A stretch of DNA of 64,000 bases from Sinonovacula constricta (lineage: Eukaryota > Mollusca > Bivalvia > Cardiida > Solecurtidae), in contig CM017564.1 in the NCBI GenBank assembly GCA_007844125.1, positions 17,132,362-17,196,361 on the forward strand. Direction: 5' to 3'. The stretch's first letter is position 1, and each line of letters opens with the position of its first letter. The notes beneath the pieces are model-generated. The model ran no database searches. It had not been told where the DNA came from and worked only from the letters and a program-made list of their open reading frames with translations. Positions 7,195 through 43,825 of the stretch are shown in pieces. The position numbers and the translations under genes are program-made.

Positions 7195-7445
7195 GACACA
7201 CCGACACTTAACAGGTCCTACGGCGTCGAATACAAAGAAGTTCAATGTGAATAGAGAATAATTAGGTAAAAACTAAACCATGCTTATAAAATATAGAAAA
7301 ATATAAAAATCTACAAGGTTGAAATAACTATAATTGAAAGATGTTAATATATTAAACGGTCTATAAATGTATAACGGTTGCTAAATAAACAGTTTAAAAA
7401 TTTATAACTTATTAACAATATTATTCTCGTTCAAGAAGCAAACAA
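7195..7445 (-). mobile_element. LINE 3' end fragment at the left edge of the palindrome
   Basis: Minus-strand reading ends ...VCFLNENNIVNKL and stop, matching the ORF2 C-terminus of the LINE at 2886-6120. A 3' UTR and the terminal motif GTATTCGACGCCGTAGGACCTGTTAAG follow, with a tail rich in AAATAATTAAACGAATAAATAA. Only the last dozen or so ORF2 codons are present. Its 5' break is exactly where the palindrome's own terminal sequence begins (7446). The outer part of this LINE end (7411-7445) is mirrored at 43791-43825. Confidence 0.75.
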
Positions 7446-7700
7446 TAGTTCGCTGCGCTTCGGCCCACATTACTCCCTCGGCTGACTAGGGTCCTCATTG
7501 ATGTGAATTATTTCTTAAATAAAATAAAATGTTATGTAATGTAAAAGACAAGAATGCAATTGATTACTTCTCTCAATAAACAACTTAAATGTCCTCATTA
7601 CCCATAATCTAATATAATCTCCGTAAATATATATTGTATGGATATGAAAGTTTATAACTGTGGACAAACAAAATCCTTTTAGACACTTGGTCGAAAAACA
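7446..7700 (+). repeat. Terminal inverted repeat of the palindrome, left end
   Basis: Begins TAGTTCGCTGCGCTTCGG and runs through CCTCGGCTGACTAGGGTCC into AT-rich sequence up to the minisatellite. Its inverse is at 43545-43790 with few differences. The first bases contain a small self-complementary motif (GTTCGCTGCGCTTCGG). Both ends join LINE ORF2 3' ends in inverted orientation, so the true element boundary could be here or slightly outside. Confidence 0.6.
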
Positions 7701-9112
7701 TTACAATGTCTCAATCCTGGTAATAGAGTTAGTACGTGTACAAATATAGTACCAACACATTACAATGACTCAATCTTGGTAATAGAGCTAGAACTCGTAC
7801 AGATATAATACAAACACACTATAATGTCTCAATCCTGGTAAGATTGTATAAATATAGTAAAGACACATTACAAAGTCCCAATCCTGATAAGAGAGTAAAA
7901 ACTCGTATAAATATATTACAAACGCACTTTAATTTCTCAATCCTGGTAATATAGTTAGAATTCGTAAAAATATAGAACAAACACATTACAATGACCCAAT
8001 CTGGTAAGAGCGTTGCAACTCGTACAGATATAATACAAACACACTATAATGTCTCAATCCTGGTAAGAGAGTTACAACTCGTATAACTATAGTACAGACA
8101 CATTACAATGTCTCAATCCTGGTAAGAGAGTTACAACTCGTATAAATATAGTAAAGACACATTACAATGTCTCAATCCTGATAAGAGAGTTACAACTCGT
8201 ATAAATATAGTACAGACACATTACAATGTCTCAATCCTGGTAAGAGAGTTACAACTCGTATAAATATAGTAAAGACACATTACAATGTCTCAATCCTGGT
8301 AAGAGAGTTACAACTCGTATAAATATAGTAAAGACACATTACAATGTCTCAATCCTGGTAAGAGAGCTACAACTCGTATAAATATAGTACAAACACATTA
8401 CAATGTCTCAATCCTGGTAAGAGAGTTACAACTCGTATAAATATAGTAAAGACACCTTACAATGTCTCAATCCTGGTAAGAGAGTTACAACTCGTATAAA
8501 TATAGTAAAGACACATTACAATGTCTCAATCCTGGTAAGAGAGTTACAACTCGTATAAATATAGTACAAACACATTAAATGTCTCAATCCTGGTAAGAGA
8601 GTTACAACTCGTATAAATATAGTAAAGACACATTACAATGTCTCAATCCTGATAAGAGAGTTACAACTCGTATAAATATAGTACAGACACATTACAATGT
8701 CTCAATCCTGGTAAGAGAGTTACAACTCGTATAAATATAGTACAAACACATTACAATGTCTCAATCCTGGTAAGAGAGTTACAACTCGTATAAATATAGT
8801 AAAGACACCTTACAATGTCTCAATCCTGGTTAGAGAGTTACAACTCGTATAAATATAGTAAAGACACCTTACAATGTCTCAATCCTGGTAAGAGAGTTAC
8901 AACTCGTATAAATATAGTAAAGACACCTTACAATGTCTCAATCCTGGTAAGAGAGTTACAACTCGTATAAATATAGTAAAGACACATTACAATGTCTCAA
9001 TCCTGGTAATAGAGTTAGAACTCGTACAGATATAATACGAACTCACTACAATGTCTTAATCCTGGTAATAGAGTTAGATCTCGTACAAATATAGTACAAA
9101 TAGTTGCAGCAT
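7700..9112 (+). repeat. 59-bp minisatellite, left subterminal array (about 24 copies)
   Basis: Monomer includes ACAATGTCTCAATCCTGGT, AAGAGAGTTACAACTCG and TATAAATATAGTA; successive ATTACAATG motifs are 59 bp apart (8102, 8161). Central copies are almost identical, while the first and last few copies are more diverged, which indicates recent homogenisation in the middle. Each monomer contains a perfect TATA-box-like TATAAATA. The mirror arrays in the right arm are at 34128-34488 and 43252-43545, with far fewer copies. Confidence 0.95.
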
Positions 9113-9310
9113 TAATCAAACGTAAGACAAAACCTTATAAACTAGTAATGCAAAAGTATCTCCTACTTTTCAGACATTATAGTTTAAACAGGGTGTATTA
9201 TATAATACACAAAGCTAGAAATTGTCATGACGTAAAGCAGATTTTATACACACTTTTTCATTATTTTAATCATGCAAAACAAAAATTACAACAAATTCGT
9301 GCACTATAAC
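9053..9310 (+). CDS. Small ORF beside the minisatellite, conserved in both arms
   Basis: The frame from about 9053 to the stop at 9308-9310 emerges from the last minisatellite copy. It encodes a basic, aromatic-rich peptide containing KTKPYKLVM, FRHYSLNRVYYIIHKARNC and NHAKQKLQQIRAL. The mirrored frame at 33919-34107 is also open, with only a few substitutions. No ATG is obvious at the 5' end in this arm; the right arm has one (MTKPYK). No domain is recognised. Open reading in both diverged arms is weak support for a real coding exon. Confidence 0.3.
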
Positions 9311-9416
9311 ATAGTCTCTGTTATGCCGTTCCTTAACACATTAAATTATAATAATCATTTCTAATGTGCAGCTTTTACACACAAACAAGTTAACTGTATG
9401 AAGCACGTTTAATTTT

Positions 9417-9650
9417 ATGTTTTTAAAAGAAATAAAAACAAGAGATGAACACATTGACAGGTTAATATTCAGTCTAAGAACGGTTTGTATATATAACAAT
9501 TCGTCTACTTCAGCATTATGCGTGTTGGTAGATGTACATCAAGAAATGACAAGAAGGCACAACGACACGACCAGCCCAGATAAATGTTCAATACTGCGTG
9601 TTTCAATGGGGTATTTCTGTAAAAAAAATAATAAATGCCACCCTAGGTAG
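9417..9650 (+). CDS. Hypothetical 77-codon ORF conserved in both arms
   Basis: Starts MFLKEIKTRDEHIDRLIFSL and ends CKKNNKCHPR. The mirror at 33574-33810 (minus) is open, with one extra codon and few changes. No motif is recognised. It is oriented opposite to the EEP gene. It could be an exon or chance; persistence in both arms is the only support. Confidence 0.25.
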   Translation: MFLKEIKTRDEHIDRLIFSLRTVCIYNNSSTSALCVLVDVHQEMTRRHNDTTSPDKCSILRVSMGYFCKKNNKCHPR

Positions 9651-9717
9651 AAAACAAATCATCTAAAAATGCTCAAATTACATACCAGTGTACAATAGTG
9701 AGATATATTATGTTAAT

Positions 9718-9797
9718 AAGGTTTACCGTCCCACCAACTGTATTCCAGTTTTCTGGAGACGGTGTTCGCTTGAAGCAGACATATTTTTATAGGTTCA
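9718..9797 (-). mobile_element. MetaSINE-like 3' tail fragment (left arm)
   Basis: AGGTTTACCGTCCCACCAACTG...TCTGGAGACGGTGTTCGCTTGAAGCAGA is the reverse complement of the 3' part of the complete SINE at 50837-51154 (CTGCTTCAAGTGGACACC...CTGTTAATGAGACGATAAACCC), with moderate divergence. Mirrored at about 33430-33512. Confidence 0.6.
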
Positions 9798-9917
9798 CAA
9801 TATCTAAAAAGAACATTCACTGATCAAATGTATTTACGAAAAGAACTATCATATGCATCAATCATACATATTATTTTTTAATAACACATCTAAGTCCAAG
9901 TTAAACAGATTTTTTCC

Positions 9918-10160
9918 CTACGACAAATCATAAACGGATTGGATTGTCATTTGCAGAGTTTTATGTTCCAATGTTGAAAATGTTTTAAAATTCTCGGAAG
10001 TCATTTTGACATGTGTTTTGTCTTGCAATATATAACAATAACCGAGGAGAGAATTTGGAACTAAATCAATAAGATTAATTCGAAAACGTTTTAACCCATC
10101 AGGGTAATGTGACATCGGGGAAAGGGAAATCTTTTAAAGTTTCCAAACCTGCAATTTCAA
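9918..10160 (-). CDS. Possible downstream exon near the EEP gene (left arm)
   Basis: Starts after an acceptor-like TTTGAAATTGCAG. A later frame contains MSHYPDGLKRFRINLIDL and continues with KMTSENFKTFSTLEHKTLQM. A one-base difference near 10112 puts the first part in another frame relative to the right arm. It lies about 100 bp downstream of the EEP stop on the same strand, so it may be a 3' exon or UTR. No domain is recognised. Confidence 0.3.
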
Positions 10161-10255
10161 AGTACAATTTTAACAACCACTACTAAGACTAGACTTTCTG
10201 TAAAGAGAAAACAACAGTTATAATTTAGAAGTCAGTCTTGACAGTGATGTATACT

Positions 10256-11524
10256 TTACAATGCCAATGTATTACACCCAAGTCCAAAAACAAGTGCACA
10301 GTGACAATCAGAGAACTTATTGTGTGTGGTCACATCTTTCACCTCAAATGATTTAAAGAGTTCCAAACACGTGTCAGTTGCAATTAGATAGTCGATAACT
10401 GATCCTTTGCTATTTTTCCTTTGTGTGCATGTGATTTCCCCTTTACCTTTGTCACTAAATAAGCGACCATTTAAAATAAATAAGTGTTCTTTTTGGCATA
10501 GTTCTTCAATTAGGCGTTTTCCATAATAGCATGGGTAATTTTTATCTAGAGATGATCTGTCTAGTGGAATGGACAGCCGTTTAAAAATGTTGCAGGTATT
10601 CATAAACCATTCCATTGAAGCATCGTTTACCTTGTAATCTGGAAGCGTACCAGTATAGCATTTAAAATCTCCAGTTAATATAACATGCTTAAAAGAACTG
10701 CAATAACATTGTACTTCACGTTCAAAATCCTTCATCATGTTTGCCTTATCAAACTGGTCTCCAGGCGGAATATATACGGCTCCTAGTACCACAGTTTTGT
10801 TGAAAGTTGGAAAAACGTTTTTTATTTTTAACCACGAGACATAGTCACATTTACCGTCAAGTACTTCAACATTTTCTTTGATTTTTGAATGAACGTATAT
10901 GCAAATACCTCCCGATCTCCGGCCTGTATCGGGTCTGCATTTTAAATAATGTTTATATCCTTTAACTTTCAATTTGTCACCATCAGTCTCATAAGCGTGA
11001 ATTTCTGTAAAGCACAGAATTTCGTGCTGCTTAATAAATTCGGTAAATGGCTGGTTTCTTAAGCGTGATTCCAAACCATTTACGTTAAGAGAACATACTT
11101 TAATTATTGATTGTTGTTCAAAATTGCATGAGATTCTTATGGATTCTAAGACACTACGATCTACATTTACATAAATTGTATTAATAGTAATGTCCTGATA
11201 AAGCCTGGCCAGAGACTGACAAGAGTTTGTTACTGCTTCAGCGTTACTTATCGAATCTTCTATTGTATGTGATGCTATCTCATGTTGCCATTCTTCCAAC
11301 TTTTTTTCGTTTTCTTCTTTGTGCTTGTTAACCTTGCAAAGTATTTCTAACTCTAGTTGCATTAATCTATTGTTTACATCTTCCCGAAACTGATTAATTA
11401 CATCCATTGTCATATCTAGAGATTTTTCATTTAATGACCGACAAGCATCTACAGCCTGCTGACATCGCTCCTTTAACTGGGTGTGCATATTTGCTTCTTC
11501 CCTTCCATCCAGTGTTTGTCCGGG
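10256..11524 (-). CDS. Coiled-coil plus EEP-superfamily nuclease protein, left-arm copy (active-site Asn replaced)
   Basis: 410 codons from ATG at 11488. The frame is open upstream to 11524, directly after an acceptor-like TTCAATTTAG, so an earlier exon is likely. Residues 1-125 are charged and helical, like a coiled coil. From about residue 127 comes an endonuclease/exonuclease/phosphatase domain: IIKVCSLNVNGLESRLR, HEILCFTEI, RRSGGICIYVHS, VYIPPGDQFD, VILTGDF, EITCTQRKNSKGSVIDY and FSDCHC. The catalytic motif GDFN reads GDFK here, which should abolish activity; the right-arm copy keeps GDFN. The final SDH motif reads SDCH in both arms. EEP domains of this kind occur in LINEs, but no reverse transcriptase follows. 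Confidence 0.75.
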   Translation of the reverse strand, partial: PGQTLDGREEANMHTQLKERCQQAVDACRSLNEKSLDMTMDVINQFREDVNNRLMQLELEILCKVNKHKEENEKKLEEWQHEIASHTIEDSISNAEAVTNSCQSLARLYQDITINTIYVNVDRSVLESIRISCNFEQQSIIKVCSLNVNGLESRLRNQPFTEFIKQHEILCFTEIHAYETDGDKLKVKGYKHYLKCRPDTGRRSGGICIYVHSKIKENVEVLDGKCDYVSWLKIKNVFPTFNKTVVLGAVYIPPGDQFDKANMMKDFEREVQCYCSSFKHVILTGDFKCYTGTLPDYKVNDASMEWFMNTCNIFKRLSIPLDRSSLDKNYPCYYGKRLIEELCQKEHLFILNGRLFSDKGKGEITCTQRKNSKGSVIDYLIATDTCLELFKSFEVKDVTTHNKFSDCHCALVFGLGCNTLAL

Positions 11525-13800
11525 CTAAATTGAAGATAAAATAAAAACACATCGTCATAAATTGTGTCACTTAAATAAATAAATCCGACATGTATAATAA
11601 GATATTTCTTATTTAATATAAAAGAGAGGTTTGTATTATCTGGTCATGCCAAACAAACTTTACATAGACATCTACAGACGCTGTACATTCACTTATGAAT
11701 GGTTAAATGTTTTATTTAAGTATATTTTAGAAATATATTCTAATTACATTTTGTAAAACGTATATTTATGACGACATAAAGAGTCTATTACAAAGATAAA
11801 AAACAATTTTGAAAGATGACAATTACAAAAATGTGGGTGATTTTATGTCATTTTCCAATTTTTGTTACGAAAAGCAAATTGTAACGTGTCCAACTGTCCT
11901 GGCTATGCTCAAGTCACGTAAATCAACAAATCCCTACTGAAAGTGGCACAATCTGATCATATGTAACACCTCCTTAGTCTTCCTAAATTAATATGTGTAT
12001 TTGTGGTATATGGGTAAGTGTGTATGTATGTACAGTTGGCACTCATAGTCTTGACTTTGATCGGTCAAACGTAAAGCGCTCGGCCTAAGAAATTTTCGTT
12101 ACGTAATTACAGACCACAATTATCGGATCTTGAAAGTATTCGATGCTAGTCAAAATTGGTGAAAAAAATATAATCGAATTCTTTCAGTGCTCTTTCTGTT
12201 ATCATTTGCGATTTTAAAATAGATACTAGATTAGAAGTTAAAATTTAATTTACAGATATTTTTTGCAGAAAAAATCAAAATATTTTTCATTTTGGAGCAT
12301 GACCCTAGCCTAAATTCCTTGTCAGCCATTTTGTACATCCGCAAATATGACATCGTGATATTTACTAACGCAAGGGTCAACAAAAACCACAAAAAGGAGC
12401 CACCAGTTCAAGTAACTTTCTTATATTATATACAGACAATACCGGAGTAAGGTCATGTTTTAAATCAATCCATCTGGATAAAGAGAGCTGAAAGATGCCG
12501 GTGAAAAGTGAAAAAACAAATAGTTTATATCAAATGTATTATAAGGACTTTACATGAAATAAGAATATCTGTAGTTAAGATTCAGATTTTTAGAAAAACG
12601 CAGCACATGTCCCAGCTTATCTTTCATTCCTTTTGATGATTCTCGGATTTGATAAGTCGTTAAATTTCGATAAAACAGCACATATTGATGTACAATGTAC
12701 ACTGGTTCCGCTTAAGGTAAAAATCTTAACGTCAAAGATGGTGATTAGTGAGAAAACGCATAAAAAATATGCTTTAATGTAAAATACATTGTAAATTATC
12801 GGAAACCATAACATAAAAAAAAGTTTTACACAGCGGTTTTCAGTGACTAAATTCTCTTAAATGACAAAGACTATATCTTAAGGTAAAATACCTGTAATGG
12901 GCAATTTTCAAAATCATAAATATATTTATACCATGGAGAAGTATACCACTTGATTGACTTATGTGCACATTTTCATAAAGTTTTGCCATAAAAGAACATA
13001 GTTTTCTGCAATTTTGCATTTTTACTCCTCTCGGTCAAAACTGTCTACGTAAAATCAGGACCTTGGAACAATAAATACAAGTGAAATTTGGATTTCTTGA
13101 TTTTTTATCATATAATTTAGGTTTATTTGATTTAGAGATGATCATTTATGAAAAAGAAAATGAAGACAATGAAAGTTGTGCAAGCAAATTGTATTTTTTA
13201 ACATAAATTATGACACAATGCCATTGAAAATCAACAATTGTGTACAAAATGAATTTTTATCACACAAAAATAATAAAAAAAATTGACCACTGGACATGTT
13301 AGGGCATTAAAGTTATGCCTTTAAGAAATTGTTTTGTTATGTTCTTTACAAACTTGGTAAATTTTATGACAAGTTTCCATGTGTTTTTTTTTAGAAAATA
13401 TCCATCTTAATGTTATGGTGTCCACAATTGCTAAGACAAAATATATTTAAAAAATGTCTATTTCACATTCCTAATCATCACAACACCAAAAATCAAATTA
13501 CACAAACAAATGGTTAAATCTTCACATGTAACCAGCAATAAATATAAACATGTATTCATCTAAACATGATAATGAAAAAACTTTAATGGACACTATTTGA
13601 ACACTGTTTAACAATCCTGTTGTTAATGCTAGATAATGCTTCTACCTTTATTAAACTCTGAATAATAAAGAGTTTTAATTTCTATCAATACAATTAATCA
13701 TAATTAACATTTTTAAAGTGTCAATAATATGTAGTTTACATAAAAGAATGGCAAGTTTTTAACTCATGGTTCATTTTATAACATATTCGATAACTTCAAA
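11525..13800. other. Non-coding part of the left arm
   Basis: AT-rich sequence mirrored at 29240-31514 with many small differences. No convincing ORF appears, since small frames are not preserved between the arms. A conserved stretch around 12900-13450 (TACCTGTAATGGGCAATTTTCAAAATCATAAATATA) mirrors 29640-30180 and could be an untranslated or regulatory region. Confidence 0.5.
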
Positions 13801-14345
13801 AACGAAGCTAGTGTTCATCACCAACCACTACACATCACTTTGTGAAATATGCTGCCGTTTTTGGATTGACTTCATCCAAGAACTTTTTGACATTTGTCAG
13901 CCTTGGTGCACCATCTGAATTCTTATTGGTTAATATACCCCTTAGACCTATAAAAGGTATTCAGATGGTAAATATTCAGTCCCGAGCCAGCGATATTTTC
14001 AGCTGTTCTTACACACATCGGATGATACAAGGCATTTTAAATGAAGGTTCTTGTTCTTTTCTAAATTAAACAACATGGAGTTGTAGACATCTTAAGGTGG
14101 ATAGCTATAACCAAGTAATTCTTTTGATGACAACTGAGTGTGTAGATATTTCAAGGATGTGACATCTGCTATGGCATTATGTGCCTCATAGGTGATTCCA
14201 AGAAGATTTGACACAAGATCTTCTTGCTTAGGAGAACCCTTGGCGGCAAAGTTTCCTAAATATTGAGAGGAAATCAATCATTCTGACACATCATTCTAAA
14301 CAATCTTTCAGTTTGCTGACTGACTGAAAGCTATTTATCAGAACA
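13801..14345 (-). pseudogene. DEDD (DnaQ-like) exonuclease, 3' remnant in left arm
   Basis: Minus-strand reading gives MIDFLSIFRKL, then QEDLVSNLLGITYEAHNAIADVTSLKYL (14230-14150). The latter contains the ExoIII-type HxAxxD motif. C-terminal pieces ENIAGSGLNIYHLNTFYR follow near 14010, with a deletion and frameshifts. The first two exonuclease motifs, present in the right arm at 27372-28690, are missing here because about 1.39 kb is absent near 14345. It cannot encode a working enzyme. Confidence 0.6.
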
Positions 14346-14631
14346 AAAGGGATTGTGTTGAAAAAACTTTCTAAAAGGAATTTTCATTTTTTATTGTAAT
14401 GAAATGTTTCACTGTCACGCATGTCTTTTTGTGTTGTTTTTTTTTTTTTGGTGCAAAATACACAAAATAAACTTAACAAGATATCCATACTTTGTTAAAA
14501 AGAGATTATGTGTGCTTTTAGATTTATTAATATGCAAAACATGCATAGAATTAATAACAGCCCAAATCTCAAGCATGGCTTCACAGCCTCATAGAATGGT
14601 CCAAGTAAATAACATTGACTTATCTGACTGA

Positions 14632-14946
14632 TTGCAGTCTCTTAATGTTTCTCCTAACTGAATGTTTCTGTGCACCCTTGTCCCAATCTACAATGCTGAC
14701 AATACTGTACTAGTGTAGATTTTTCAGCAAAATATCAAGCTCGATCACTCTCTGTCCATGCCAGCTTTCTAACCGGCCATTTGTCTGCTTTCGGTGCGAA
14801 AATACCGGACAGTTCTGTGTTCTACACTTACAAATACTTAGTATGTCTGCATAGTTGTGCTGTACGATTATGTTGGATTTCTTTCCAATCTTTCTTGTTT
14901 TTTGCTTTAAAACGCCTTTTTGGAAGTAAGGCATGTCAATAAACAA
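14632..14946 (-). pseudogene. Mutator-like transposase N-terminal fragment (left arm)
   Basis: The ORF from 14946 has a basic start (KQKTRKIGKKSN), then ILSICKCRTQNCPVFSHRK, and ends in WHGQRVIELDILLKNL. 'GxRVIELDILLKNL' followed, with a shift, by CQHCRLGQG matches the beginning of the Mutator-like transposase domain common in molluscs. The rest of that domain, including any DDE residues, is absent. At the exon end the sequence corresponding to a donor reads CAG/ATAAGT, where the right arm has CAG/GTAAGT, so the splice site is also lost here. Confidence 0.5.
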
Positions 14947-14959
14947 GTAATTGAAATAG

Positions 14960-17585
14960 CATGGTTAGGGAGAAAATGGGAAAGACTTAACATATGCAAT
15001 ATGACAGGATCTGATTGGCTACGCGGTCTTTCTTTATTCCTGTAAGTGCTGTAAGATTATGAAGATCAGGAGATGATGAGTAGGGGGTAGTATGTCAGCA
15101 CACACTTTTCTTACAATATGCGCCAGCATTCGACTCTGACTCGATTATGTTTTTTTTTATTTTGAAATTAAGTACACAAATATTGTTTTCTTGAGAGTAC
15201 TCGGTTAAAGATGTCCATACTCTAGAAACGGATGTTCAAGAATTTAAATAACCGTATACTCGTTGACATCCCTAAAGTATACAAATAGCATCTTATTTAT
15301 AAAATACATGTAAAACAGCTTCAAAGCAAAGCCGTTTTACAAGAGTAGCATAGATTTGCCTGTGCCTTGTTGCTTCTTAAACCACATTTTACAAACACAC
15401 ACACACGGACGCACGCGCATACACACACTTACACACACCAAGGCGCGCATGTATATCTCAACTTCCTTATGTTCCCCACAGAGAGAATATGCAGCAAACA
15501 GCTGCAACTGGTTAAAACGAAGGATCACCAGCTATGGTCAATGTATGTTGCCGCCGTTGTAGAATATAAAATATTAAACTTATTGAAAACGTTGGGAAAT
15601 ATCAATTGGGAGAAAACAGTTAATTCTCACTGTACAAAAACACATGTTTTAATTTGTTTATCTCAAAAATATATGACAAAATCAACGAGCATTGCAACAT
15701 ATACCAAAATTTGAAAAGGCACAGGACAAAGGTATTCACATGCAAGCCAAATGTAAAAGTAAGAACAAATCTGTGATGAGTCATTTAACAAAATTAGCGA
15801 ACCCGGCAGTTACCGCCTTGGAACGGTCAGTCGGCAATATGGACCTTCTTGGGTGCTTAAATCGGTTTTAAAGAGCTCTAACCTCGCACTTCCCGATAGG
15901 TTTCTCAAATGCGAACAAGTAAAAGACAACCGATCTGTTTGAATACAAAAGTCAAAGCGCACGTTTTCTTTGATAAGTTTTGACGAATGTAGTGACGTCA
16001 TAGAAAAATAATGTCCACAGTGTGTTTAAAGGAGAGGGATTTTATTTCAATCAGAAGAACTACATATGTTGATTGACGAAATCCTAAAAGCATTGCAACA
16101 TATACCAAAATTTGAAAAGCCATTGTAAATGTTAGACATATGCAGAAGATATTTATTATGTCGTGGAATATATTTTCCACATTAAGCTGTACTATACCTT
16201 TTCTTTTACAAGAAATTAATGTTAACATTGCTAATATTGATTGGATAATTTTTAGTGACACATAAATACATCATAAAAAGAACTCCATCATAGTTGTTAA
16301 ATCTGCACGAAATGTGAAGCTCGGTTATGATGTGGTAATATTAACGGCGAAAGTGGCTAAACTGATATATGTAGGTTTTATTATTTGTCTGGTAAATGAG
16401 CATTGACTTGCTTCTTTGCCGTGGGAAAATTGTCCATTTATGATGAGTTAGAAATTATTTAGATTTTTGTCCTATCAGTCAATCTTGCTCCATTATAATA
16501 TTTTCTTCTTTATAATCAGTAGAGGATTGTCTGAGCGGAATAAATATCTGTTCTAGCCTTCTGTATTTGTTGTCTACATTCTGTGAGACGAAATCGCGAA
16601 GCATAGCGATCCTTCTTTAAAATTCCCGTTAATGGGATGTTGTTTACGTGCAGCGCATTTACTGAGTATTTAGTTTTCAAAATCAGGTAGTAAGTCTTCT
16701 TTCAAGTAGTTGGGATTTTTTAAGTGGTATATATACTGGTAATAGGAGCAGAGATTTATTTATAGTGGTCTTGTGGTCTTGTGATTTAATGAATAATATA
16801 TATTCATAAAGACTATCTTGTTAGATACATCTCAGCAACACAATTATGGTCATTTCAGCAACATCCAACTATTTTGGTGAATGGACGCCCAAGCCAAATA
16901 TCTGAGTAGAAAAAAATGGTATAACAGAGTTCTGCCTTCCTACATTATGTCGCATATCTGAACCTTGAGAAGAACCCAAGCGGCAAAAAAAACAACTGGG
17001 ATATCAGAGAAGTGTTCGTCGTCTATGTGTGTAGCCGAGCGTCAGTTTGTCCATCTGTACGTTCGTCTGTGTGTTTGTTTATACAGATCAACGTGAAAAT
17101 ATCTCGTCTTCTATTGTTGATCGTTGACCGTTGCTGATTTATTTTAAAGTCTTAATTTTATTGAATTTTAATTTTTATTCATAATGCTGATAAACTCTCA
17201 ATCAAGCGTACGTATAGGTATAACCTTTGATAGAAAAAAAGTATTCCACATAGTCAGGGATTATGGGTAAAAGGATTTTAACTTACCTGCATAGAATTGA
17301 AGAAAGTAATTACGTTGAAGGATGTAAGATAATGAAAATAGAACCACGTTTCTATATCAATATTGTTGAATACAGAGAATATACTTAAAATTGACACATA
17401 CATAAATGATATGTATACATTTTGTCAAAACGTGTTTTAAACAATTTTAGAATTATTTATGAAATATTCCGTTAACATAAAAGGCTTTTGATAAGCCTTA
17501 GATTTTGGATTAAAATAAATGGATTACAATATATTTACAACGTTTAATAAAGTAGTATTTAAGAGAACAATCCGTAAACTGATTT
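14960..17585. other. Left-arm intergenic region
   Basis: Mirrored at 23430-26100. It contains a short CA-rich run (15391-15440, ACACACACACACGG...), a repeat copy (15715-16000) and otherwise AT-rich sequence. A mirrored small frame at 16497-16690, open in the right arm as 24333-24524 (with CRQQIQKARTDIYSAQTILY), is frameshifted here and is not called as a gene. Confidence 0.5.
15715..15995 (-). repeat. Interspersed repeat with the motif CCAAGGCGGTAACTG, left-arm copy 1
   Basis: Contains GTTACCGCCTTGGAACGGTCAGTCGGCAATATGG and ...CTTCCCGATAGGTTTCTCAAATGCG. Related copies are at 25060-25370, 27950-28330 and more distantly 17930-18190 and 22800-23060. Short traces appear at 45255-45275. No ends or coding capacity are recognised; it could be a non-autonomous DNA element. 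Confidence 0.6.
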
Positions 17586-34488: not shown

Positions 34489-34506
34489 TCCAATCCAATC
34501 CAAACA

Positions 34507-35238: not shown

Positions 35239-35766
35239 GTGGAAATGGCTCCTGACATTTCAAAAGCAATAAACTATAACTGCGACTATATACAACTTAC
35301 ATCTATACTATCTTAGTCATAGTTAAACTTATAATAAACATTTATAGGTAATATTGCATACTAATAATGTACAACATTATTGCATACAACAGTTATTAAA
35401 CAAATCCCCTTAAAGCGGCATCATCTTATTATGCCTGTAAAGGAATGTATACATTAATACAACACTACCATCTTATTTAACCCGCAAAAAAAAATGCATG
35501 ATTTCAATGAACATCTGGTAATATGTATTGAACAATTCAATAAGATATAAATTCTTATCTAAAATATAAAATCACATTAATTATATCAAACAATAAATAG
35601 TTACACAATATAGGCAATACACACTGACAATGTGCACATCTGAAATTAAGGAACAATTGTATAGACATTGAGTGATTTCTTTAAAGACTTCACTTACAAT
35701 CTTCCAATTTCATAGTTACAGTATAGTAAAACAAAACATTGAAAAATATTTACACGAAAAAGATGA
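35239..35766 (-). other. Gypsy 3' untranslated region
   Basis: AT-rich sequence between the pol stop and polypurine tract. Nothing coding, and no env-like ORF present. Confidence 0.5.
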
Positions 35767-38700
35767 TCACCTGAAATATTCAAAATCAAATTCAAGGTCT
35801 GAAGCATTTGCTTTGATTGGTGTGACCCATTCACCATATCGTTTTGGTGGTACTCGTTGTCGAACTGGTCGAGTAGGTAACACTCTAGGCGAACTAGAAT
35901 TTGGTGCGTTTGGTTCAGGTTGTGTAGCAGACTGTGCTACAGAAGATTCAATAGGATCAGTACTGGGACTTGTCATTTCTGAATGATTCAAAGAGTGTGA
36001 ACAACTTTCAGATAGATTGTTCCTATTTGTCCGATCAAGAGTACGGGACTTACAGAAATTTGTTTGGGTCTCTGACACTACATTATAATTCTGTAAATCA
36101 GGTAAGTGTGAACTTGACTTGGTAGAACGGAAAGTAGGTACATAGGCAAACATTGACTCTTCTTCATCAGAATCTGATGACGTCTTACCTTCCTTATCTT
36201 CGTGAACAGTGGATGGACAACTAGTATGTTTCAACAAAGGTTTGCATCTTTGTTTACCAGAGATACACTGCGACTGTTCAGAAACAAGATTTGGACAAGA
36301 CAAAAGTAAATTTCTATGAAGAGTCTTGATTGGTCCTCTCTTACCCTCTAATTGTACTTGTACGACAGGATTGTCTGGATTGGGGATAGAGACTACAACA
36401 TAGATATCTTGGTCCCATTTGTCTGCAAGTTTGTTTGTTCCTTGTAAACCAACCTTACGTTTAAGAACCCGATCACCAACTTCTAACTTGGTGTGCCTCA
36501 CTTTGCTATCATAGTATTGCTTGTTTTTGCTGACTTGCTTCCCAGCATTTTCGGCAGCTGTTCTATAAGCAAATTGTAAACGTTGCTGAAGCTTTTCTAC
36601 ATAGCCAGTACGCGACGTTGATCCAGTGTTTTCATCAGAAGGATCGGTTCCCAGATAAGCATCTACAGGAAGTCTTGGGTGCCAGCCGTACATGAGATAA
36701 TGCGGTGCATAACCAGTCGCGTCATTCTTTGTTGCGTTATACGCTTGTACGAGTGGTGCTATGTACAGCTTCCAGTCAGACTTTTGACAGTTGTCTAGCG
36801 TACCGAGCATTTTTAAGAGCGTTTGATTCCATCGTTCTGCTGAACCATTACCCATTGGATGGTATGGTGTGGTTTTTGACTGTTTAATACCTGCAATCTT
36901 ACATAACTCTTTGATAGTGTGGCTCAAGAAGTTACGGCCTTGGTCACTGTGGAGTTGTTCAGGGAAACCGTAATATCTAAAGAAACCTTCATAAAGAGCT
37001 TTGGCTGTTGTAAGAGCAGATTGATTGTGGCAAGGGATAGCCTGTGCAAAACGTGTGAAATGGTCTACAATAACAAGAATGTTTTCAAAACCTCCTTTAC
37101 ATGGTTCAAGCTTCAAGAAATCAATCGAAACAAGCTCCATAGGTCTACTGGTATGAATAGTTTGTAACTCTGCAAACGGTCTCGAAATTGGAGTTTTCCG
37201 ACGGATACAACGATCACACTGTTCAACCCATTGTGAAATATCAGCATCCATACCAGGCCAATAAAATCGTTGCTTGGCTAACCATGTAGTCTTTTCCTTT
37301 CCTTGATGACCTGCATCATTATGAATTCCTCTGAGAGCAATATTCCGATGAGAAAACGGAAGAACAAGCTGTCTAACCTGATTACCATCTACTGTAGCAG
37401 ATCTATAAAGAACACCTTTATCTATAAATAGACGATCTGGATGTTTCAGGCATTTTCTCACTGCAAGTGACTCTTTAAAAAGTGTCTGTCTAGAAATTTT
37501 ACCAGCTTCAATTAGTTCTATAACTCGCTGTAAAACTTTATCTGAACTCTGCTCTATCTTCCAATCTATCTTGGCTACAGCCTCAGTTGCATACAACTCC
37601 TCACTGGCCACATGAGGAGCAGCAGTGTCTGACAAGCTACCAGCTAATGGAGCTGAGATAATGGCTGCCTGATAAATTGCCTTCACTTCATCTTGGTAGA
37701 TGTAACGCCTGGAAAGACCATCTGCATCAGCATTCAGCTTGCCGCTCCGGTATTCCATACTGAAATTGTAATTTGCCAATTCTGACAACCAACGGTGCAT
37801 TGTTGCATCTAACTTTGCAGTTGTAGTCACATAGTTCAAAGGATTGTTGTCTGTTTTAACAACAAATTCATTGCCATACAAATAGTCATGAAATTGATCA
37901 GTGACACTCCATTTTAGAGCGAGAAACTCTAACTTATGTGCAGGATAATTTCTCTCATTGGGCCGAAGACTTCTACTGGCATAGCAAATAACACGCTCTA
38001 TACCATTCTGCTCCTGTAAGAGAACAGCTCCAAGACCACTTGAACTGGCATCGGTATGAACGATAAAAGGAAGAGAATAGTCTGCATAACCCAAGATAGG
38101 TGGAGTAGTCAAGACCTCTTTCAACTTATCAAAAGCTTTCTGTTGAGCTTCATCCCAGTGCCATTTAACAGGAGAAGTGATTTTCTTTCTAGACTTGTTT
38201 GAGCCTTTGTTATTCGAATGACCATGCAGAAGATCATGCAAAGGTCGAGCAATTTGAGCATAGTTATGGACATACTTCCGATAATACCCTGTAAAACCAA
38301 GAAATTGTCTCAAAGTTTTGACATTTGTGGGAACAGCCCAATCAACAATACTGGAAATCTTCTGTGGATCAGTTGCTATACCATCTGCAGAAACAACATG
38401 GCCTAAATATACAACTGATGGTTTAAAGAACTCACATTTGGAAGGCTTTACCCTAAGGTTATGGTCACTAAGTCTCTGAAAAACAGCATCTACTCTGGCA
38501 AGATGATCCTCAAAGCTGGTAGAGAAGATTAGGATATCATCAAGATATACAAGACATTCTCGTAAGTGCATATCGCCCATACACTTCTCCATGCAACGCT
38601 GAAAAGTAGCAGGTGCGTTTACCAGTCCAAAGCCCATTCGATTCCATTCATAAAAACCAAGATTTCCAACTGAAAATGCAGTCTTTTCACGATCACTCTC

Positions 38701-39963
38701 ATCAAGACCAATTTGCCAATACGCAGAATGAAGATCAATCTTGGAAAAATATCTAGATCCAGCAAGAACATCAATAGTATCATTGAACCTAGGCAGCATA
38801 TATGCATCTTTCTTTGTACGGTTGTTGAGTATTCTCCAGTCAATACAGAAGCGAAGTGTTCCACAAGGCTTTCTGACTAAAACAACGTTTGATGAGAAAG
38901 GAGACTCTGATTCTCTAATAATACATGCATCTAAAAGTTCTTTGATGTGCTGTCTTACTTCCTCATACATTGCTGGTGGTATCTTACGGTAAGGATCCTT
39001 AAATGGGGTCTCGTCCTCAAGAACAATACGATGTTTGGCCGAATCAGTGACACCAATTTCTTTAGTAGACCTACAAAACACATGTTCCAATTTGTTCAAC
39101 AGGCTGAAAAATTGAGTTACCTGTTCTGGAGTAAGATGCGATACATCTACAGAAATATCATTGATTGGAGATTCAGGGTTAGATACATGTGATGTCATAG
39201 AGGTGATGTCATCAATTACATGAGCTTGAGAGATGGTACAAATATTTGACCTGGGATTGATTGAAATGGTTTTAGCAGTCATGTTACAAATCATCACAGG
39301 GAATTTTGCAAGAGAATTATTTGTGACATTTATCACCCTAGGACAAACTGAGTATCCATGGAATATATCTGGAGATTCTGTGACAACTGAAAAAATTGAG
39401 GGATCAATATTCCTTGCTATACCATTTACAGTGACAGTCTCAAATGGGGAAATGTTTATGGTTTTCTTACCACATAATTTCACTGGATATGTATGTGAAA
39501 CCAAAGAATCAACAGCAATCTGCCATTCTTCTGAAAGATGAATCCCAACAGTTGACTCACCAAGATACGACTTGTACCTTCTCAGAACATTTGTTCCAAT
39601 GATCACTGGACATAATCTGTTGAACTCATTGTCAGGAATTACTAAAATTGGGGTGTCAAGTTTGAAACAAGACAAAGATGGAATAGAGACTTCAATCTCT
39701 GCGTATCCCAGATAACTGAGAGATGAACCATCTGCAAGTGAAAGATTTAGTCCAAGAGAATCTAGAGGATGAAGTATAACACTAGGACTCAGAGATCTAA
39801 AAAGTGAATGACTTATGGTGGATACCATTGAACCAGTGTCCAACAGACATTTGTAGTTTACACTATTTAGAGAAACAAACTGTTCATTTTCAGTACCAAT
39901 GAGTCTATCAACTAATATCTCATCTTTCTGGGCAACCCCTTTACCTTCCCCTGTATTGCCCAC
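35767..39963 (-). CDS. pol: Gypsy pol polyprotein (protease, RT, RNase H, integrase)
   Basis: 1398 codons without a stop. Aspartic protease: LLDTGSMVSTIS at about residues 41-52. Reverse transcriptase: about 320-500, with FSKIDLHSAYWQI and the catalytic LVYLDDILIFS at about 472. RNase H: about 630-750, with VHTDASSSGLGAVLL. Integrase: zinc-binding HHCC around 880-920 (QWVEQCDRC) and catalytic Asp, Asp, Glu in VSIDFLK (about 949), HSDQGRNF (about 1006) and SAERWNQ (about 1042). The C-terminal part has VGDRVLKRK, then a Ser-rich tail. The listed start is GTG; the frame is open a little further upstream and overlaps the end of gag, so pol is probably expressed by frameshift. All catalytic residues are intact. 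Confidence 0.95.
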   Translation of the reverse strand: MGNTGEGKGVAQKDEILVDRLIGTENEQFVSLNSVNYKCLLDTGSMVSTISHSLFRSLSPSVILHPLDSLGLNLSLADGSSLSYLGYAEIEVSIPSLSCFKLDTPILVIPDNEFNRLCPVIIGTNVLRRYKSYLGESTVGIHLSEEWQIAVDSLVSHTYPVKLCGKKTINISPFETVTVNGIARNIDPSIFSVVTESPDIFHGYSVCPRVINVTNNSLAKFPVMICNMTAKTISINPRSNICTISQAHVIDDITSMTSHVSNPESPINDISVDVSHLTPEQVTQFFSLLNKLEHVFCRSTKEIGVTDSAKHRIVLEDETPFKDPYRKIPPAMYEEVRQHIKELLDACIIRESESPFSSNVVLVRKPCGTLRFCIDWRILNNRTKKDAYMLPRFNDTIDVLAGSRYFSKIDLHSAYWQIGLDESDREKTAFSVGNLGFYEWNRMGFGLVNAPATFQRCMEKCMGDMHLRECLVYLDDILIFSTSFEDHLARVDAVFQRLSDHNLRVKPSKCEFFKPSVVYLGHVVSADGIATDPQKISSIVDWAVPTNVKTLRQFLGFTGYYRKYVHNYAQIARPLHDLLHGHSNNKGSNKSRKKITSPVKWHWDEAQQKAFDKLKEVLTTPPILGYADYSLPFIVHTDASSSGLGAVLLQEQNGIERVICYASRSLRPNERNYPAHKLEFLALKWSVTDQFHDYLYGNEFVVKTDNNPLNYVTTTAKLDATMHRWLSELANYNFSMEYRSGKLNADADGLSRRYIYQDEVKAIYQAAIISAPLAGSLSDTAAPHVASEELYATEAVAKIDWKIEQSSDKVLQRVIELIEAGKISRQTLFKESLAVRKCLKHPDRLFIDKGVLYRSATVDGNQVRQLVLPFSHRNIALRGIHNDAGHQGKEKTTWLAKQRFYWPGMDADISQWVEQCDRCIRRKTPISRPFAELQTIHTSRPMELVSIDFLKLEPCKGGFENILVIVDHFTRFAQAIPCHNQSALTTAKALYEGFFRYYGFPEQLHSDQGRNFLSHTIKELCKIAGIKQSKTTPYHPMGNGSAERWNQTLLKMLGTLDNCQKSDWKLYIAPLVQAYNATKNDATGYAPHYLMYGWHPRLPVDAYLGTDPSDENTGSTSRTGYVEKLQQRLQFAYRTAAENAGKQVSKNKQYYDSKVRHTKLEVGDRVLKRKVGLQGTNKLADKWDQDIYVVVSIPNPDNPVVQVQLEGKRGPIKTLHRNLLLSCPNLVSEQSQCISGKQRCKPLLKHTSCPSTVHEDKEGKTSSDSDEEESMFAYVPTFRSTKSSSHLPDLQNYNVVSETQTNFCKSRTLDRTNRNNLSESCSHSLNHSEMTSPSTDPIESSVAQSATQPEPNAPNSSSPRVLPTRPVRQRVPPKRYGEWVTPIKANASDLEFDFEYFR

Positions 39964-39974
39964 TACAGAGGTGG

Positions 39975-41107
39975 TTACCAGTTTGTTGACCTCAGGTTGT
40001 TACTATTTCTCCTTGGATAACGGTTGTTTGGTTGACCACGTCCACCTCCACGACCTCTTAAGTTGTTCTGTGCCTGAAAAGAAGTACCATAGTGTGTGAC
40101 ATTTCTATTGACCTCAATTTGTTTCATAATTTGGTCGAATTTGTTATCAATTTTCTTATCTAACTGCAATACAGTTTCAGACAATTTCTTTTCAAGGGAG
40201 ACAATTCTAGTCTCAAACGTGGATTCTGCAGATACAGGAGTATCGCACCAGACGACATGCATGAAGTCTGCGTAGAACTCAACTCTTTTTCTACCTTCCT
40301 AACTTCTTTCATCAGTAAGTTGTAGTCCAATACCGAGTCATATTTGTGTCTTGTGTTTAACTTTAGCATTTCTGAATGCAAACCAGTCCAAAATTTATGT
40401 CTGAGTAAATCATTCTTGGCTAAACCTGGCAACTGACCTTTGGAAATAATTGACTGTAAGAGAGTTTCAAGTCTACAGGCAAAGGCAGTCACTGACTCAG
40501 TAGGGTTCTGTCTACTATTGAAAAACTCTGCAATCAAGTCTTCTTGAGATGCAGCATCTGCAAACATTACATCTAACTTCCCAACTATTTCATCAATAGT
40601 GGCATCCTGTCCAAGTGGTATAACCATCAATCTAGCAGTACCCCTCAGAGAACCTCTCACCACATGCAGAATTTGTGCCTCAGTCAATTCATTATTACTG
40701 TGAATGCATTGCACTTCATATTTCCAGATTGTGTAAGATACCTCACCCTTGGGTAGTGGTTCATCTCCTGAGAAGCATGGTAACTTTGGCAAAGACTGTG
40801 AATAGGCAGTAAAGGGTCTAGATATACCAGGAGTTGAAGAAAAGAATGACTGTCTAGAATTGACATCTTGCTCTGGTGCTGTAATTTTACTCAAAGGAGG
40901 CGGTACTTTTGGTTTTGCTCCTTGATTACACACCTTTATCAGATCAGCTAAGCGAGGCTGGGGAGGAGAAACCTTTTCAGCTTTGTCATCCTGATCCACT
41001 TGTAATGACTTAAACTTATCATCAATGTATCTGAAAATAAGATTCAAATCATGCTTACCATCAGTCATATTCAGATCCTCCGTACTAATATCTTTTGTCT
41101 CTGCCAT
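39975..41107 (-). CDS. gag: Gypsy gag, read in two overlapping frames
   Basis: The first frame runs 41107-40160 from MAETKDISTEDLNM and holds the capsid-like region, with CFSGDEPLPKGEVSYTIWKY, GSLRGTARLMVIPLG, FFNSRQNPTESVTAFACRL and LRHKFWTGLH. The coding sense shifts near 40255-40285 into a second frame, ending at 39975. That frame is coiled-coil-like (VSLEKKLSETVLQLDKKID) and ends in an RG-rich tail (RGRGGGRGQPNNRYPRR) in place of CCHC knuckles. The shift could be a one-base mutation in this copy or natural recoding. The second frame overlaps pol by about 40 nt in the -1 relation. Confidence 0.8.
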
Positions 41108-42507
41108 AGTATCTGGTACTATCCGTCATCAACCTAAACTGCTAAAATTCTATGCAAAATGACATTACAAAACAATGTTCAATGTTAAAAAATCAAATAT
41201 AAACTCATTTGTAAACAATGATGTATGCAAGTTATTAAACACATAAAACCCCTGAAAAATAATTGAACTATAAAGTTTCAATATCAACAGTGCAAAATAT
41301 ATTAATCACCATTCGAAAGCACAGCTGTAAACCATACTGGAATTTCCCAGTGCTAAAAATAGAACCCTGTGTACCTAGCTAACTGACACTTATGTAATAC
41401 ACAGCACAACTAATGTACTGTCTAGCATCTACTCTTCACTGCTGACCTAATCATTCAACACACTAACTAGCTATTTACACCTGCAGACTGATCTCCACTG
41501 TGTCCACTAACTCTACACTACACTATACTACACTCTACCTGGCCTTATCATTGGGAAAAGTAATAGGGGACTCAATGTATTTCAGCACATGACATGAAAA
41601 CAGTGTAAACGATGATCATAAAGGATGATATAAAACGGATCAAAGCAATATACAATAATATAATCTCTCACTCATTCAAATAGAGAAAACAGAAAGATAA
41701 CTGTGTTAATATGTCAAGTTTTAGATGAGATAGAGGGAAGGAAGAATAAACAGACAGAAACAAAATATAATAGATAAATTTAAGCACACAATTACAACTT
41801 TTAATATCTTATTGAAAAATAAACTGCAAACAAGCTTTCTTACTCTATCATTTCACTTCATATTTGTTTGTTTAATCTCAAGAATAAAATGTATGTTTAA
41901 AAGAAATTTTAGTATCAAGCTATATGATCAAAAAGAATTATCTATAAAAAAAAAAAGATTTTGAAAATGTTTAAGAAATAACTGAAATCTCTGAAAATTA
42001 GATTTAACTAGCTTAGATTTAAAAATGACTGTCTTCAGAATATTTATCAGGAAATGACTTTGAATGTTTTATGAAAACATGTAATACTACATATTTAATT
42101 CAATAAAAATGGAAAGTATCTTTGAATAAGAAAAAATAGTAATAAATCACAAACAATATCTACAAAATTGTATTTTTAAACACAAAATTCACAAACACAG
42201 GTTCAGTTCGCGAATGAGTCCACATCCGAAGCTCCAACGCCGAAAACGAAAGCACGTGCTTAGCACTTTCTGTCACTCCATCTCGAGAGAATACACAAAG
42301 AATATTGGCCCAATACTATTAAACACAACAAAATATTATCAAGTACAGATAATATCAGCGCGTGTAATGTGTGCACACAGAAAAAAAATCGCTAGCTAGC
42401 TCTCTAAAACAGGCAAACTCACTCGTCTTCGGGTTGACAAACCTCTGGTCCGTTGAGTCGCTCAGGATAGGCTGAATACCTGGCTACGCTGTAGTTTCAA
42501 ACTCCCG
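41108..42507 (-). other. Gypsy 5' untranslated leader
   Basis: AT-rich sequence between primer-binding site and gag ATG (about 1.4 kb). Small frames are not conserved motifs. No extra gene recognised. Confidence 0.5.
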
Positions 42508-42525
42508 TTCCCGGCCGGGGAGCCA
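42508..42525 (-). promoter_or_regulatory. Primer-binding site (tRNA 3' end match, Asp-like)
   Basis: On the plus strand TTCCCGGCCGGGGAGCCA, two bases from the 5' LTR. This has the form of a tRNA 3' end with CCA, so its complement is the primer-binding site. The acceptor part GGGGAG-CCA is like tRNA-Asp, but the exact tRNA cannot be fixed by eye. Confidence 0.7.
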
Positions 42526-42527
42526 TA

Positions 42528-43251
42528 TGTAACCAGGGTTTTATAATGATAAAGAAAGTAATTTCTTTTCCAAGGTCTTGTTTATTGTGTATTTGAAGAA
42601 CGGGAGTGTAACTCAAACTGTAACCTAAAATAAAATTAACAATTCTAAGAAAAAGGAAAATATCTTGCATTAAGGAAGTGAAAAACATTGTTATAGAGAG
42701 TTGTAGAAATAGGTGGAAATAGAAAGATGGAGAAGTAGATACAGAGAAGTTCATTACAATAATTCTATTTCATTACGGTAATTCAAAGTAACAATTCACA
42801 TATTGCTAAACATCTCAAACATTTCAATTAAACAATTCAAACTATTGCATTATACAGTAATACATATATTTAAAATAAAAAGAAACTCACCAGGTTATTC
42901 ATAAAGTAGTAGGCTTAGTAATTCTTAATAACATGGCAGTGACTTGCTCGATTGGTGGCAAGGAGAGGACTGACTTTAGATAGAGACGGCTAGAGAAGGT
43001 GATGAGAAAGCATGTGAAAAGTGTGCAAGAGCGGGAAAATTAGTGGTGTCATGAATATTAATTAGAAAGATATTGTCTCATCCAATCCAAACATCTTGCA
43101 TCCAAACTAATGAATATTTATACTGGAAAGATATTTATAGAAATACAGGTATGGACAACTGGATATTGACTGTGTAATTTAAGTGAGTAAAGTATAGGGG
43201 TATAATATAGGGATATGATATAGGGATATATGATACACAAATTATGCTACA
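42528..43251 (-). repeat. Gypsy 5' LTR
   Basis: 724 bp, nearly identical to 34507-35224. Plus-strand reading TGTAACCAGGG ... TTATGCTACA. As the 5' LTR on the minus strand it should hold the promoter; no confident TATA box was assigned. Confidence 0.9.
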
Positions 43252-43545
43252 CTATATTAATACGAGTTGTAACTCTCTTACCAGGATTGAGACATTGTAA
43301 TTTGTTTGTACTATATTTATACGAGTTGTTACTCTCTTATCAGGATTGAGACATTGTAATGTGTCTGTACTATATTTATACGAGTTGTAACTCTCTTACC
43401 AGGATTGAGACATTATAGTGTGTTTGTATTATATCTGTACGAGTTCTAGCTCTATTACCAAGATTGAGTCATTGTAATGTGTTGGTACTATATTTGTACA
43501 CGTACTAACTCTATTACCAGGATTGAGACATTGTAATGTTTTTCG
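43252..43545 (-). repeat. 59-bp minisatellite, right-arm outer part (about 5 copies)
   Basis: Continuation of 34128-34488 beyond the Gypsy element, starting CTATATTAATACGAGTTG and ending at the terminal repeat. Confidence 0.9.
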
Positions 43546-43790
43546 ACCAAGTGTCTAAAAGGATTTTGTTTGTCCACAGTTATTAACTTTCGTATCCATA
43601 CAATATATATTTACGGAGATTATATTAGATTACAGGTAATGAGGACATTTAAGTTGTTTATTGAGAGAAGTAATCAATTGCATTCTTATCTTTTACATTA
43701 CATTACATTTTATTTTATTTAAGAAATAGTTGATATCAATGAGGACCCTAGTCAGCCGAGGGAGTAATGTGGACCGAAGCGCAGCGAACC
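43545..43790 (-). repeat. Terminal inverted repeat of the palindrome, right end
   Basis: Mirror of 7446-7700. It ends ...GGACCGAAGCGCAGCGAACC and then joins ATTGTTTGCTTCTTGAACG, the LINE ORF2 end. Confidence 0.6.
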
Positions 43791-43825
43791 ATTGTTTGCT
43801 TCTTGAACGTGATTAATATTCTTAG
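43791..43825 (+). mobile_element. LINE ORF2 3' end stub at right edge of the palindrome
   Basis: ATTGTTTGCTTCTTGAACG then TGATTAATATTCTTAG reads TIVCFLNVINIL, matching the ORF2 C-terminus of the local LINE family. It is the mirror of 7411-7445. Homology to the LINE stops after about 40 bp. Confidence 0.6.

What the first reader, a model, noticed from the sequence alone, without database searches (positions are those of the whole stretch)
7411..43825. A 36-kb palindrome with a 1.26-kb unique loop
The left arm (7411-19791) is repeated in reverse in 21055-43825, with the same order of about a dozen landmarks. Arms of 12-14 kb with cargo genes, subterminal satellite arrays and a matching unique terminal sequence would, if mobile, be an unusual large-TIR element. 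Alternatives are an old inverted duplication or two haplotypes joined head to head. The unique loop and the unequal indels argue against a plain read-chimera artefact, though a haplotype join is possible in a highly heterozygous mollusc.
Basis: partly seen in the sequence, partly recalled or inferred. Interest (0 to 1): 0.85.

Follow-up and report, generated by a model that had tools for sequence, protein, structure and literature searches.

The report
Inverted copy in a gene cluster
The 36-kb palindrome is real in the assembly, but it looks like one block of a repeated gene cluster lying backwards next to a sister copy, with a small mobile element between them, and not like a giant jumping gene.

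Summary
The inverted repeat is in the assembly at the stated coordinates: arms 7411-19791 and 21055-43825, loop 1,263 bp, best segment 4.8 kb at 96.1%. It is not a large-TIR element. Four further arm copies were found, all on the same chromosome and in + orientation. The window's left flank runs on through the supposed terminus into the left flanks of two of them; its right flank, inverted, matches the left flank of the other two. In colinear pieces, 21055-63187 is an inverted second paralogue type with about 19 kb of its flank; normal order resumes at 63190. The loop is a dispersed MITE-like element (at least 40 places), also found beyond the arm in all four sister units. About 8.7 kb of the right arm is a young LTR retrotransposon. 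Outer arms group with different paralogues; the inner 3.4 kb of the two arms group together, with a switch near 16,277. I read this as an inversion inside a cluster plus arm-to-arm copying. Reads are needed to exclude a misjoin. The cluster's LINE-type endonuclease exon (at least 25 loci in 4.2 Mb) is the better lead.

The parts
1..7410 (+). Left flank, C-type: continues the homology of units C1 and C2 across the supposed terminus
   Evidence: 1-2787 at 96.7% and 4149-7420 at 97.5% to pieces of C10:20960459-20967958; 94.0-97.3% to pieces of C10:20999708-21006926
7411..19791 (+). Left arm (WL): C-type paralogue unit
7698..9098 (+). 59-bp tandem array, 23.9 copies
10256..11524 (-). LINE-type endonuclease (EEP) exon, left copy, open frame of 422 aa; K where the right copy has N in GDF[N/K]C
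16278..19791 (+). Inner tract where the two arms are each other's closest relatives (98.8% over 3,376 aligned bases, measured on 16300-19683)
19707..19731 (+). Host sequence left of the MITE, shared with units A1, B and C1; the ~1.23 kb that sister units have between 19706 and 19707 is missing in both arms
   Evidence: Letters aligned to A1, B, C1; spacing in A1, B, C1, C2
19732..21023 (+). MITE-like element (the 'loop'); its own right terminal repeat is missing
21024..21054 (+). About 31 bp of host sequence that lies right of the MITE in sister units; ends at the inversion junction
   Evidence: 25 of 30 letters to A1, 27 of 30 to B, 21 of 23 to C1; scores 20, 24, 19 against at most 14 in 1,000 shuffles of the A1 stretch
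21055..63187 (-). Inverted B-type block: ~60 bp of its own MITE, the right arm and ~19 kb of left flank (LTR element and other TEs included). Matched in colinear pieces; 45.75-50.40 and 50.99-56.10 kb have no match in the fetched loci, and genome searches of 49.2-51.6 and 51.2-53.2 kb did not complete
21055..43825 (-). Right arm (WR) of the palindrome, with the LTR element inside
28211..29235 (+). Apparent remains of a PML-type gene: PML_C domain at 28990-29232; the piece 28211-28615 looks to me like an exonuclease but its Pfam match is weak; pieces lie in different frames
   Evidence: PF25244 E=3.7e-9; Exu_RNase_H_like E=0.04, below its cut-off; frames; relatives
31515..32783 (+). LINE-type endonuclease (EEP) exon, right copy, open frame of 422 aa
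   Evidence: PF03372 E=3e-7; L1 endonuclease structures E=2.7e-5
34507..43220 (-). LTR (Gypsy-type) retrotransposon inserted in the right arm's 59-bp array
   Evidence: LTRs 99.7% identical; RVT_1, RNase H and rve domains
43826..50985 (-). Part of the inverted flank matched to the left flanks of A1 and B; about 760 bp that A1 has beside the arm are missing here
   Evidence: 43842-44919 at 92% (A1 and B); 44913-45738 at 94.6% (B); 50405-50985 at 94.8% (A1)
63190..64000 (+). Sequence that lies 2.8-4 kb beyond the MITE in sister units, back in normal orientation
   Evidence: B 20862183-20862560 at 92.1%; A1, C2 and B also match from 63500-63528

Best explanation
The palindrome is a by-product of an inversion inside a low-copy, same-chromosome gene cluster. 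A C-type unit (left flank, arm, MITE) is followed by a ~42-kb B-type block (60 bp of MITE, arm, left flank, with an 8.7-kb LTR insertion) lying in reverse. Both blocks contain the same arm, so they read as an inverted repeat, and the C unit's MITE is left as the loop. Shown from sequence: the two units with their separate flanks, both junctions (21054/21055 and 63187/63190), the shared 1.23-kb deletion, and the mosaic with a switch at about 16,277. Inferred: (1) the junctions arose by inversion with loss of about 4 kb (the rest of the second MITE plus ~2.7 kb) at the far end; (2) the MITE's inverted ends helped breakage or strand switching, since both near-centre breaks lie within ~60 bp of MITE ends; (3) the inner 3.4 kb was homogenised later by arm-to-arm gene conversion; (4) the LTR element came late.
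For: Copies and orientation. Left flank = C1/C2 left flank. Right flank inverted = A1/B left flank, in colinear pieces out to 63187: 20805659-20808135 -, 92-97%; 20802076-20805659 -, 92-96%; 20800684-20802010 -, 93-97%. Normal order from 63190. Junction letters. Outer tree joins WL+C1 (100%) and WR+B (98%); inner tree joins WL+WR (100%); each data set rejects the other's tree (AU 0.027 and 7e-8); best single switch 16277, score 400 against a maximum of 136 in 2,000 shuffles. The MITE follows the arm in all 4 sister units, with matching host letters in the three aligned. EEP paralogues in this cluster lie on both strands (10 +, 15 - by my count), so reversed units are ordinary there.
Against: A clean inversion should leave the reciprocal junction; the rest of the second MITE and ~2.7 kb are missing, so a deletion must be added. 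The flank that spans 19 kb here spans 43 kb in B, and two stretches of 4.7 and 5.1 kb have no match in the fetched loci. No donor closer than ~94% to the outer right arm was found. The window's MITE is only slightly closer to the sister units (90.5-91.7%) than to dispersed copies (89.3-90.2%). No reads, no second haplotype and no relative were available, so neither junction is verified physically. The AU value for the outer data is only 0.027.
Confidence: 0.78

Rival explanations
1. Fold-back duplication with template switching: a break just past the MITE folded back ~60 bp inside the MITE, copied the inner 3.4 kb in reverse, then switched to a B-type unit and copied on through its flank.
For: Both arms share the 1.23-kb deletion and near-identity next to the centre, and the loop comes from one copy, as expected of fold-back. 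Fold-back inverted duplication is described (PMC10622511, search listing and start of abstract; PMC10766186, abstract and outline).
Against: If all was copied at once, the outer right arm should be ~1% from its donor; it is 93.6-94.4% to A1, B, C1 and C2. The donor may be lost.
Confidence: 0.25
2. Assembly error: two paralogous or allelic segments joined head to head at the MITE.
For: The centre lies in repeat sequence. The inner tract divergence (1.2%) is what two alleles could show. There are no reads to check.
Against: Arms are not identical (40 mismatches in 3,376 aligned bases, and a difference of about 140 bp in length beside the centre), so it is no simple hairpin read. Flanks belong to different paralogue types, each seen elsewhere. 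The inverted block has a second, different junction where normal order resumes. Matches of the two arm pieces searched lie only on contigs C1-C19, none on the many smaller contigs (one search scored 40 of 219 candidates).
Confidence: 0.15
3. A mobile element with giant terminal inverted repeats, as first proposed.
For: Symmetrical arms with a subterminal satellite and a gene; similar end sequences.
Against: Homology crosses both ends in other copies. No facing pair was found elsewhere. No transposase domain was found in the arm and loop frames tested. I saw no clear target-site duplication at the ends. Loop-element copies lack arms in 7 of 7 inspected.
Confidence: 0.02

Closest known systems
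Inverted segmental duplications / palindromes with arm-to-arm gene conversion (mammalian X and Y palindromes; PMC8981503 and PMC3723533, search listing and start of abstract only)
   Same: Two inverted arms around a spacer, with a tract where the arms are closer to each other than to paralogues
   Different: Mammalian arms exceed 99% in those abstracts; here only the inner 3.4 kb is close (98.8%) and the outer arms are 94.5%
Fold-back / ODIRA-type inverted copy-number variants (PMC10766186, abstract and outline; PMC10622511, search listing)
   Same: Inverted copies joined at a palindromic junction, with further rearrangement
   Different: The outer right arm and its flank are an old, different paralogue, not a copy of the left side
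MITE-type non-autonomous DNA transposons (label from recall)
   Same: About 1.2-1.4 kb, 30-39-bp terminal inverted repeats, at least 40 places
   Different: Family not named; target-site duplication not determined
LINE (L1-type) endonuclease domain
   Same: EEP family by Pfam, matches L1-EN structures
   Different: An exon behind a stretch that looks coiled-coil-like, with no reverse transcriptase domain in the frame tested, and clustered on one chromosome

Membership tests
Large-TIR DNA transposon | Homology between copies stops at the inverted-repeat ends | tested here: not met
   Left flank continues in C1 and C2; right flank continues in A1 and B
Large-TIR DNA transposon | Several dispersed whole copies with facing ends | tested here: not met
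   Terminal query: 11 rows, 9 of 9 candidates scored; 8 rows are the two window ends and four same-strand sister units on C10 (two of them in two pieces), and 3 weak rows lie on C19 and C4
Large-TIR DNA transposon | Transposase gene | tested here: not met
   No transposase domain in the arm and loop frames scanned (2 arm frames, 10 arm and loop frames); not every frame was scanned
Large-TIR DNA transposon | Target-site duplication at the outer ends | tested here: inconclusive
   No clear direct repeat seen by eye at 7411 / 43825
Inverted paralogous block in a segmental-duplication cluster | Related same-chromosome copies that share flanks | tested here: met
   A1, B, C1, C2
Inverted paralogous block in a segmental-duplication cluster | Two identifiable junctions with order restored outside | tested here: met
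   21054/21055 and 63187/63190
Inverted paralogous block in a segmental-duplication cluster | Junctions present in single DNA molecules | not testable with these tools
   No reads available
Gene-converting palindrome | Arms closer to each other than to paralogues along their length | tested here: inconclusive
   Met for the inner 16.46-19.68 kb; not met for 9.1-16.28 kb, where the left arm is closer to C1
Joined haplotypes | Outer flanks allelic to each other | tested here: not met
   Flanks share only six short pieces at 73-90% in 2.9-7.4 and 55.4-57.6 kb, read as repeats
MITE | Short terminal inverted repeats and many dispersed copies | tested here: met
   30-39-bp inverted ends in 7 of 7 loci L002-L008; 40 places with only 40 of 293 candidates scored
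MITE | Target-site duplication | not tested
   Not worked out

The most novel reading that the evidence does not exclude
The arms carry one member of a young host gene family built from a LINE-type endonuclease domain: at least 25 loci within C10 17.08-21.24 Mb, few elsewhere, the right copy's exon preceded by a splice-acceptor-like site, under purifying selection (dN/dS 0.32-0.44 in 9 of 10 pairs among five near copies). It would be kept similar and reshuffled by inversion, gene conversion and MITE-associated breaks, so the palindrome would be a snapshot of concerted evolution of a domesticated endonuclease cluster.
Probability: 0.35. Interest if true: 0.55.

Novelty: new member of a known kind. 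Interest (0 to 1): 0.27.

Why it matters
It removes a candidate giant-TIR transposon and shows how a convincing one can be mimicked: two paralogous blocks in opposite orientation around a small transposon. The chromosome-confined cluster of LINE-type endonuclease exons would matter if it proves to be an expressed, domesticated gene family.

Tried and rejected
Large-TIR element: rejected on flanks and copies. Simple hairpin read: rejected because the arms differ. Loop as a host-unique spacer: rejected. Searching for relatives in viral contigs: 5 stretches matched a pattern and none was confirmed; terminal pattern 0. Protein database: 3 relatives, best 52% identity over 56% of the query, no context. 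Rfam: 0 matches. Paper searches: 'long terminal inverted repeats' with transposable, mollusc and bivalve, 0 papers; a five-term search on domesticated LINE endonucleases, 9 papers holding at least 4 terms, none judged relevant from the listing. These two searches do not show that such a family or element is absent from print. A search for the PML_C family in the genome did not complete. Target-site duplication of the LTR element: not clear. The claim that the organism is a mollusc was not tested.
Full report
Observation. Self-comparison of the window confirms inverted arms at 7411-19791 and 21055-43825 around a 1,263-bp loop. Identities of the five main segments run from 88.9% to 96.1%, with gaps counted. 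The right arm is longer chiefly because a Gypsy-type LTR retrotransposon with 99.7% identical LTRs sits in its 59-bp array.

Genome context. The own genome (1.22 Gb, 177 contigs; the window is C10:17132362-17196361) answered seven searches. The outer 266 bp of the left arm gives 11 rows: eight are the two window ends and four sister units on C10 (two of them in two pieces), three are weak rows on C19 and C4. The inner arm query (52 rows, 40 of 219 candidates scored) shows the same units; of the five closest other copies only the window's right arm is on the - strand. I name the sister units A1 (17.079 Mb), B (20.844), C1 (20.968) and C2 (21.007).

The ends are not ends. The window's left flank matches the left flanks of C1 and C2 at 94-97% in long pieces, straight across 7411. 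The right flank, inverted, matches the left flanks of A1 and B in colinear pieces: 43842-44919 (92%), 44913-45738 (94.6% to B), 50405-50985 (94.8% to A1), 56100-58400 (92-97% to B), 58400-61600 (92-96% to B), 61660-62205 and 62437-63187 (97% and 93% to B). The stretches 45.75-50.40 and 50.99-56.10 kb have no match in the fetched loci; genome searches of 49.2-51.6 and 51.2-53.2 kb did not complete. The flank is 19 kb here and 43 kb in B, so one or both have gained or lost sequence. Beside the arm the window lacks about 760 bp that A1 has. So the palindrome ends where two paralogue types stop being alike, not where an element ends.

The loop. The loop query gives 93 rows: 41 long ones (40 places, two rows being halves of one copy, the window included) and short matches, mostly to the ends. 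Only 40 of 293 candidates were scored, so this is a lower bound. In 7 of 7 copies inspected with 1.5 kb of flank (L002-L008; L002 is unit B) the only inverted repeat found is 30-39 bp at the ends. All four sister units carry the element, about 1.23 kb further from the arm. The host letters beside it match the window where I aligned them: A1, B and C1 on the left and on the right (25 of 30, 27 of 30 and 21 of 23 letters). Gap-free identity of the window's copy is 90.5-91.7% to the four sister units and 89.3-90.2% to six dispersed copies, a small difference.

Junctions. Both arms share the same loss of about 1.23 kb just before the element. The window's element has lost its own right end; about 31 bp of the host sequence that lies to its right in sister units follows. 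At 21055 the sequence switches to the inverted unit, starting about 60 bp inside that unit's own element. The far junction is at 63187/63190: inverted B flank on one side, and on the other normal-orientation sequence that in B lies 2.8 kb beyond the element.

Mosaic. Over 9101-16100 the left arm is 98.0% to C1 and 94.5% to the right arm. Over 16300-19683 it is 98.8% to the right arm and 94.5% to C1. Trees agree, and each data set rejects the other's topology (AU 0.027 for the outer data, 7e-8 for the inner). The best single switch is 16277: 331 C1-like and 79 right-arm-like sites before it, 17 and 165 after; score 400 against at most 136 in 2,000 shuffles. The tandem array and everything left of 9101 were left out of this comparison. 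In an earlier run C1 was poorly chained; replace it.

Mechanism. An inversion of a ~42-kb B-type block next to a C-type unit, with about 4 kb lost at the far end, explains both junctions. Later arm-to-arm gene conversion explains the young inner tract between old outer arms. Fold-back copying with a template switch explains the shared deletion equally well but predicts a close donor for the outer right arm, which was not found. Gene conversion in mammalian palindromes is described in PMC8981503 and PMC3723533 (listing and start of abstract only). Fold-back and origin-dependent models are in PMC10622511 (listing and start of abstract) and PMC10766186 (abstract and outline).

Artefact. The two arms carry different paralogue-type flanks, each seen elsewhere, and there are two unlike junctions. 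This is not what a hairpin read or a plain haplotype join gives. The flanks outside the palindrome share only six short repeat-like pieces. Reads were not available, so I leave 15% for a misjoin.

Cargo. The 422-aa frame is an EEP endonuclease of LINE type. It is open in both arms: 48 differences, 25 amino-acid changes. With the same substitutions placed at random, 95% of 2,000 trials gain a stop, the mean is 35.2 changes, and 0 of 2,000 have 25 or fewer. dN/dS is 0.32-0.44 in 9 of 10 pairs among WR, WL, A1, B and C2; the tenth pair, A1-C2, differs by one change. C1 was left out because of a 1-bp gap in the frame. The A1 and C2 frames hold one stop each, which appears to lie one codon before the usual end. 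In the genome, one search lists 104 rows (99 of 1,743 candidates scored). By my count 25 loci (30 rows) at 41% identity or more lie in C10 17.08-21.24 Mb, 10 on + and 15 on -. Three more such loci (4 rows) are elsewhere (C1:64.79, C10:41.8, C17:40.7), and the other 70 rows are at 40% or less, several in frames of over 1,000 aa, as LINE ORF2 would be (not checked). A PML_C domain and an exonuclease-like piece beside it lie in different frames and look broken.

Verdict. A real and well-observed structure in the assembly, ordinary in kind: an inverted paralogous block around a small transposon. The gene cluster deserves its own look.

Noticed in passing
10256-11524 (-), 31515-32783 (+), and C10:17.08-21.24 Mb: LINE-type endonuclease exon family with at least 25 loci on one chromosome, purifying selection among five near copies, and a splice-acceptor-like sequence before the right copy. 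Two paralogues (L035, L036) carry ESGKTETS-type repeats in frame.
   Followed up: partly
10256-11524 versus 31515-32783: Left copy has GDFKC where the right has GDFNC, a position I recall as catalytic in L1 endonuclease; both arm copies read SDCH near the C-terminus where P0002 reads SDH.
   Followed up: no
34507-43220 (-): Young Gypsy-type LTR retrotransposon, LTRs 99.7% identical, Pol frame open, gag-like frame matching PNMA.
   Followed up: partly
C10:17080902-17090000 and C10:21009385-21018300: Units A1 and C2, 3.9 Mb apart and with different flank types, are 99.4-100% identical in 9 of the 10 500-bp bins from 10.4 to 15.4 kb of the arm (one bin had no data) and each has an extra ~4.8-4.9 kb at the same place: this suggests recent exchange between the two clusters.
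   Followed up: no
28211-29235 (+) and 13811-14277 (-): PML_C domain and exonuclease-like pieces in the window's two arms and in A1, B, C1 and C2, with frame breaks or stops.
   Followed up: partly
46661-48126 (-), 48514-48918 (-), 59526-59909 (+): DDE_1 transposase with HTH_psq/Tc5 domains, a HIRAN-domain frame, and a DDE_Tnp_4 transposase fragment in the inverted flank.
   Followed up: no
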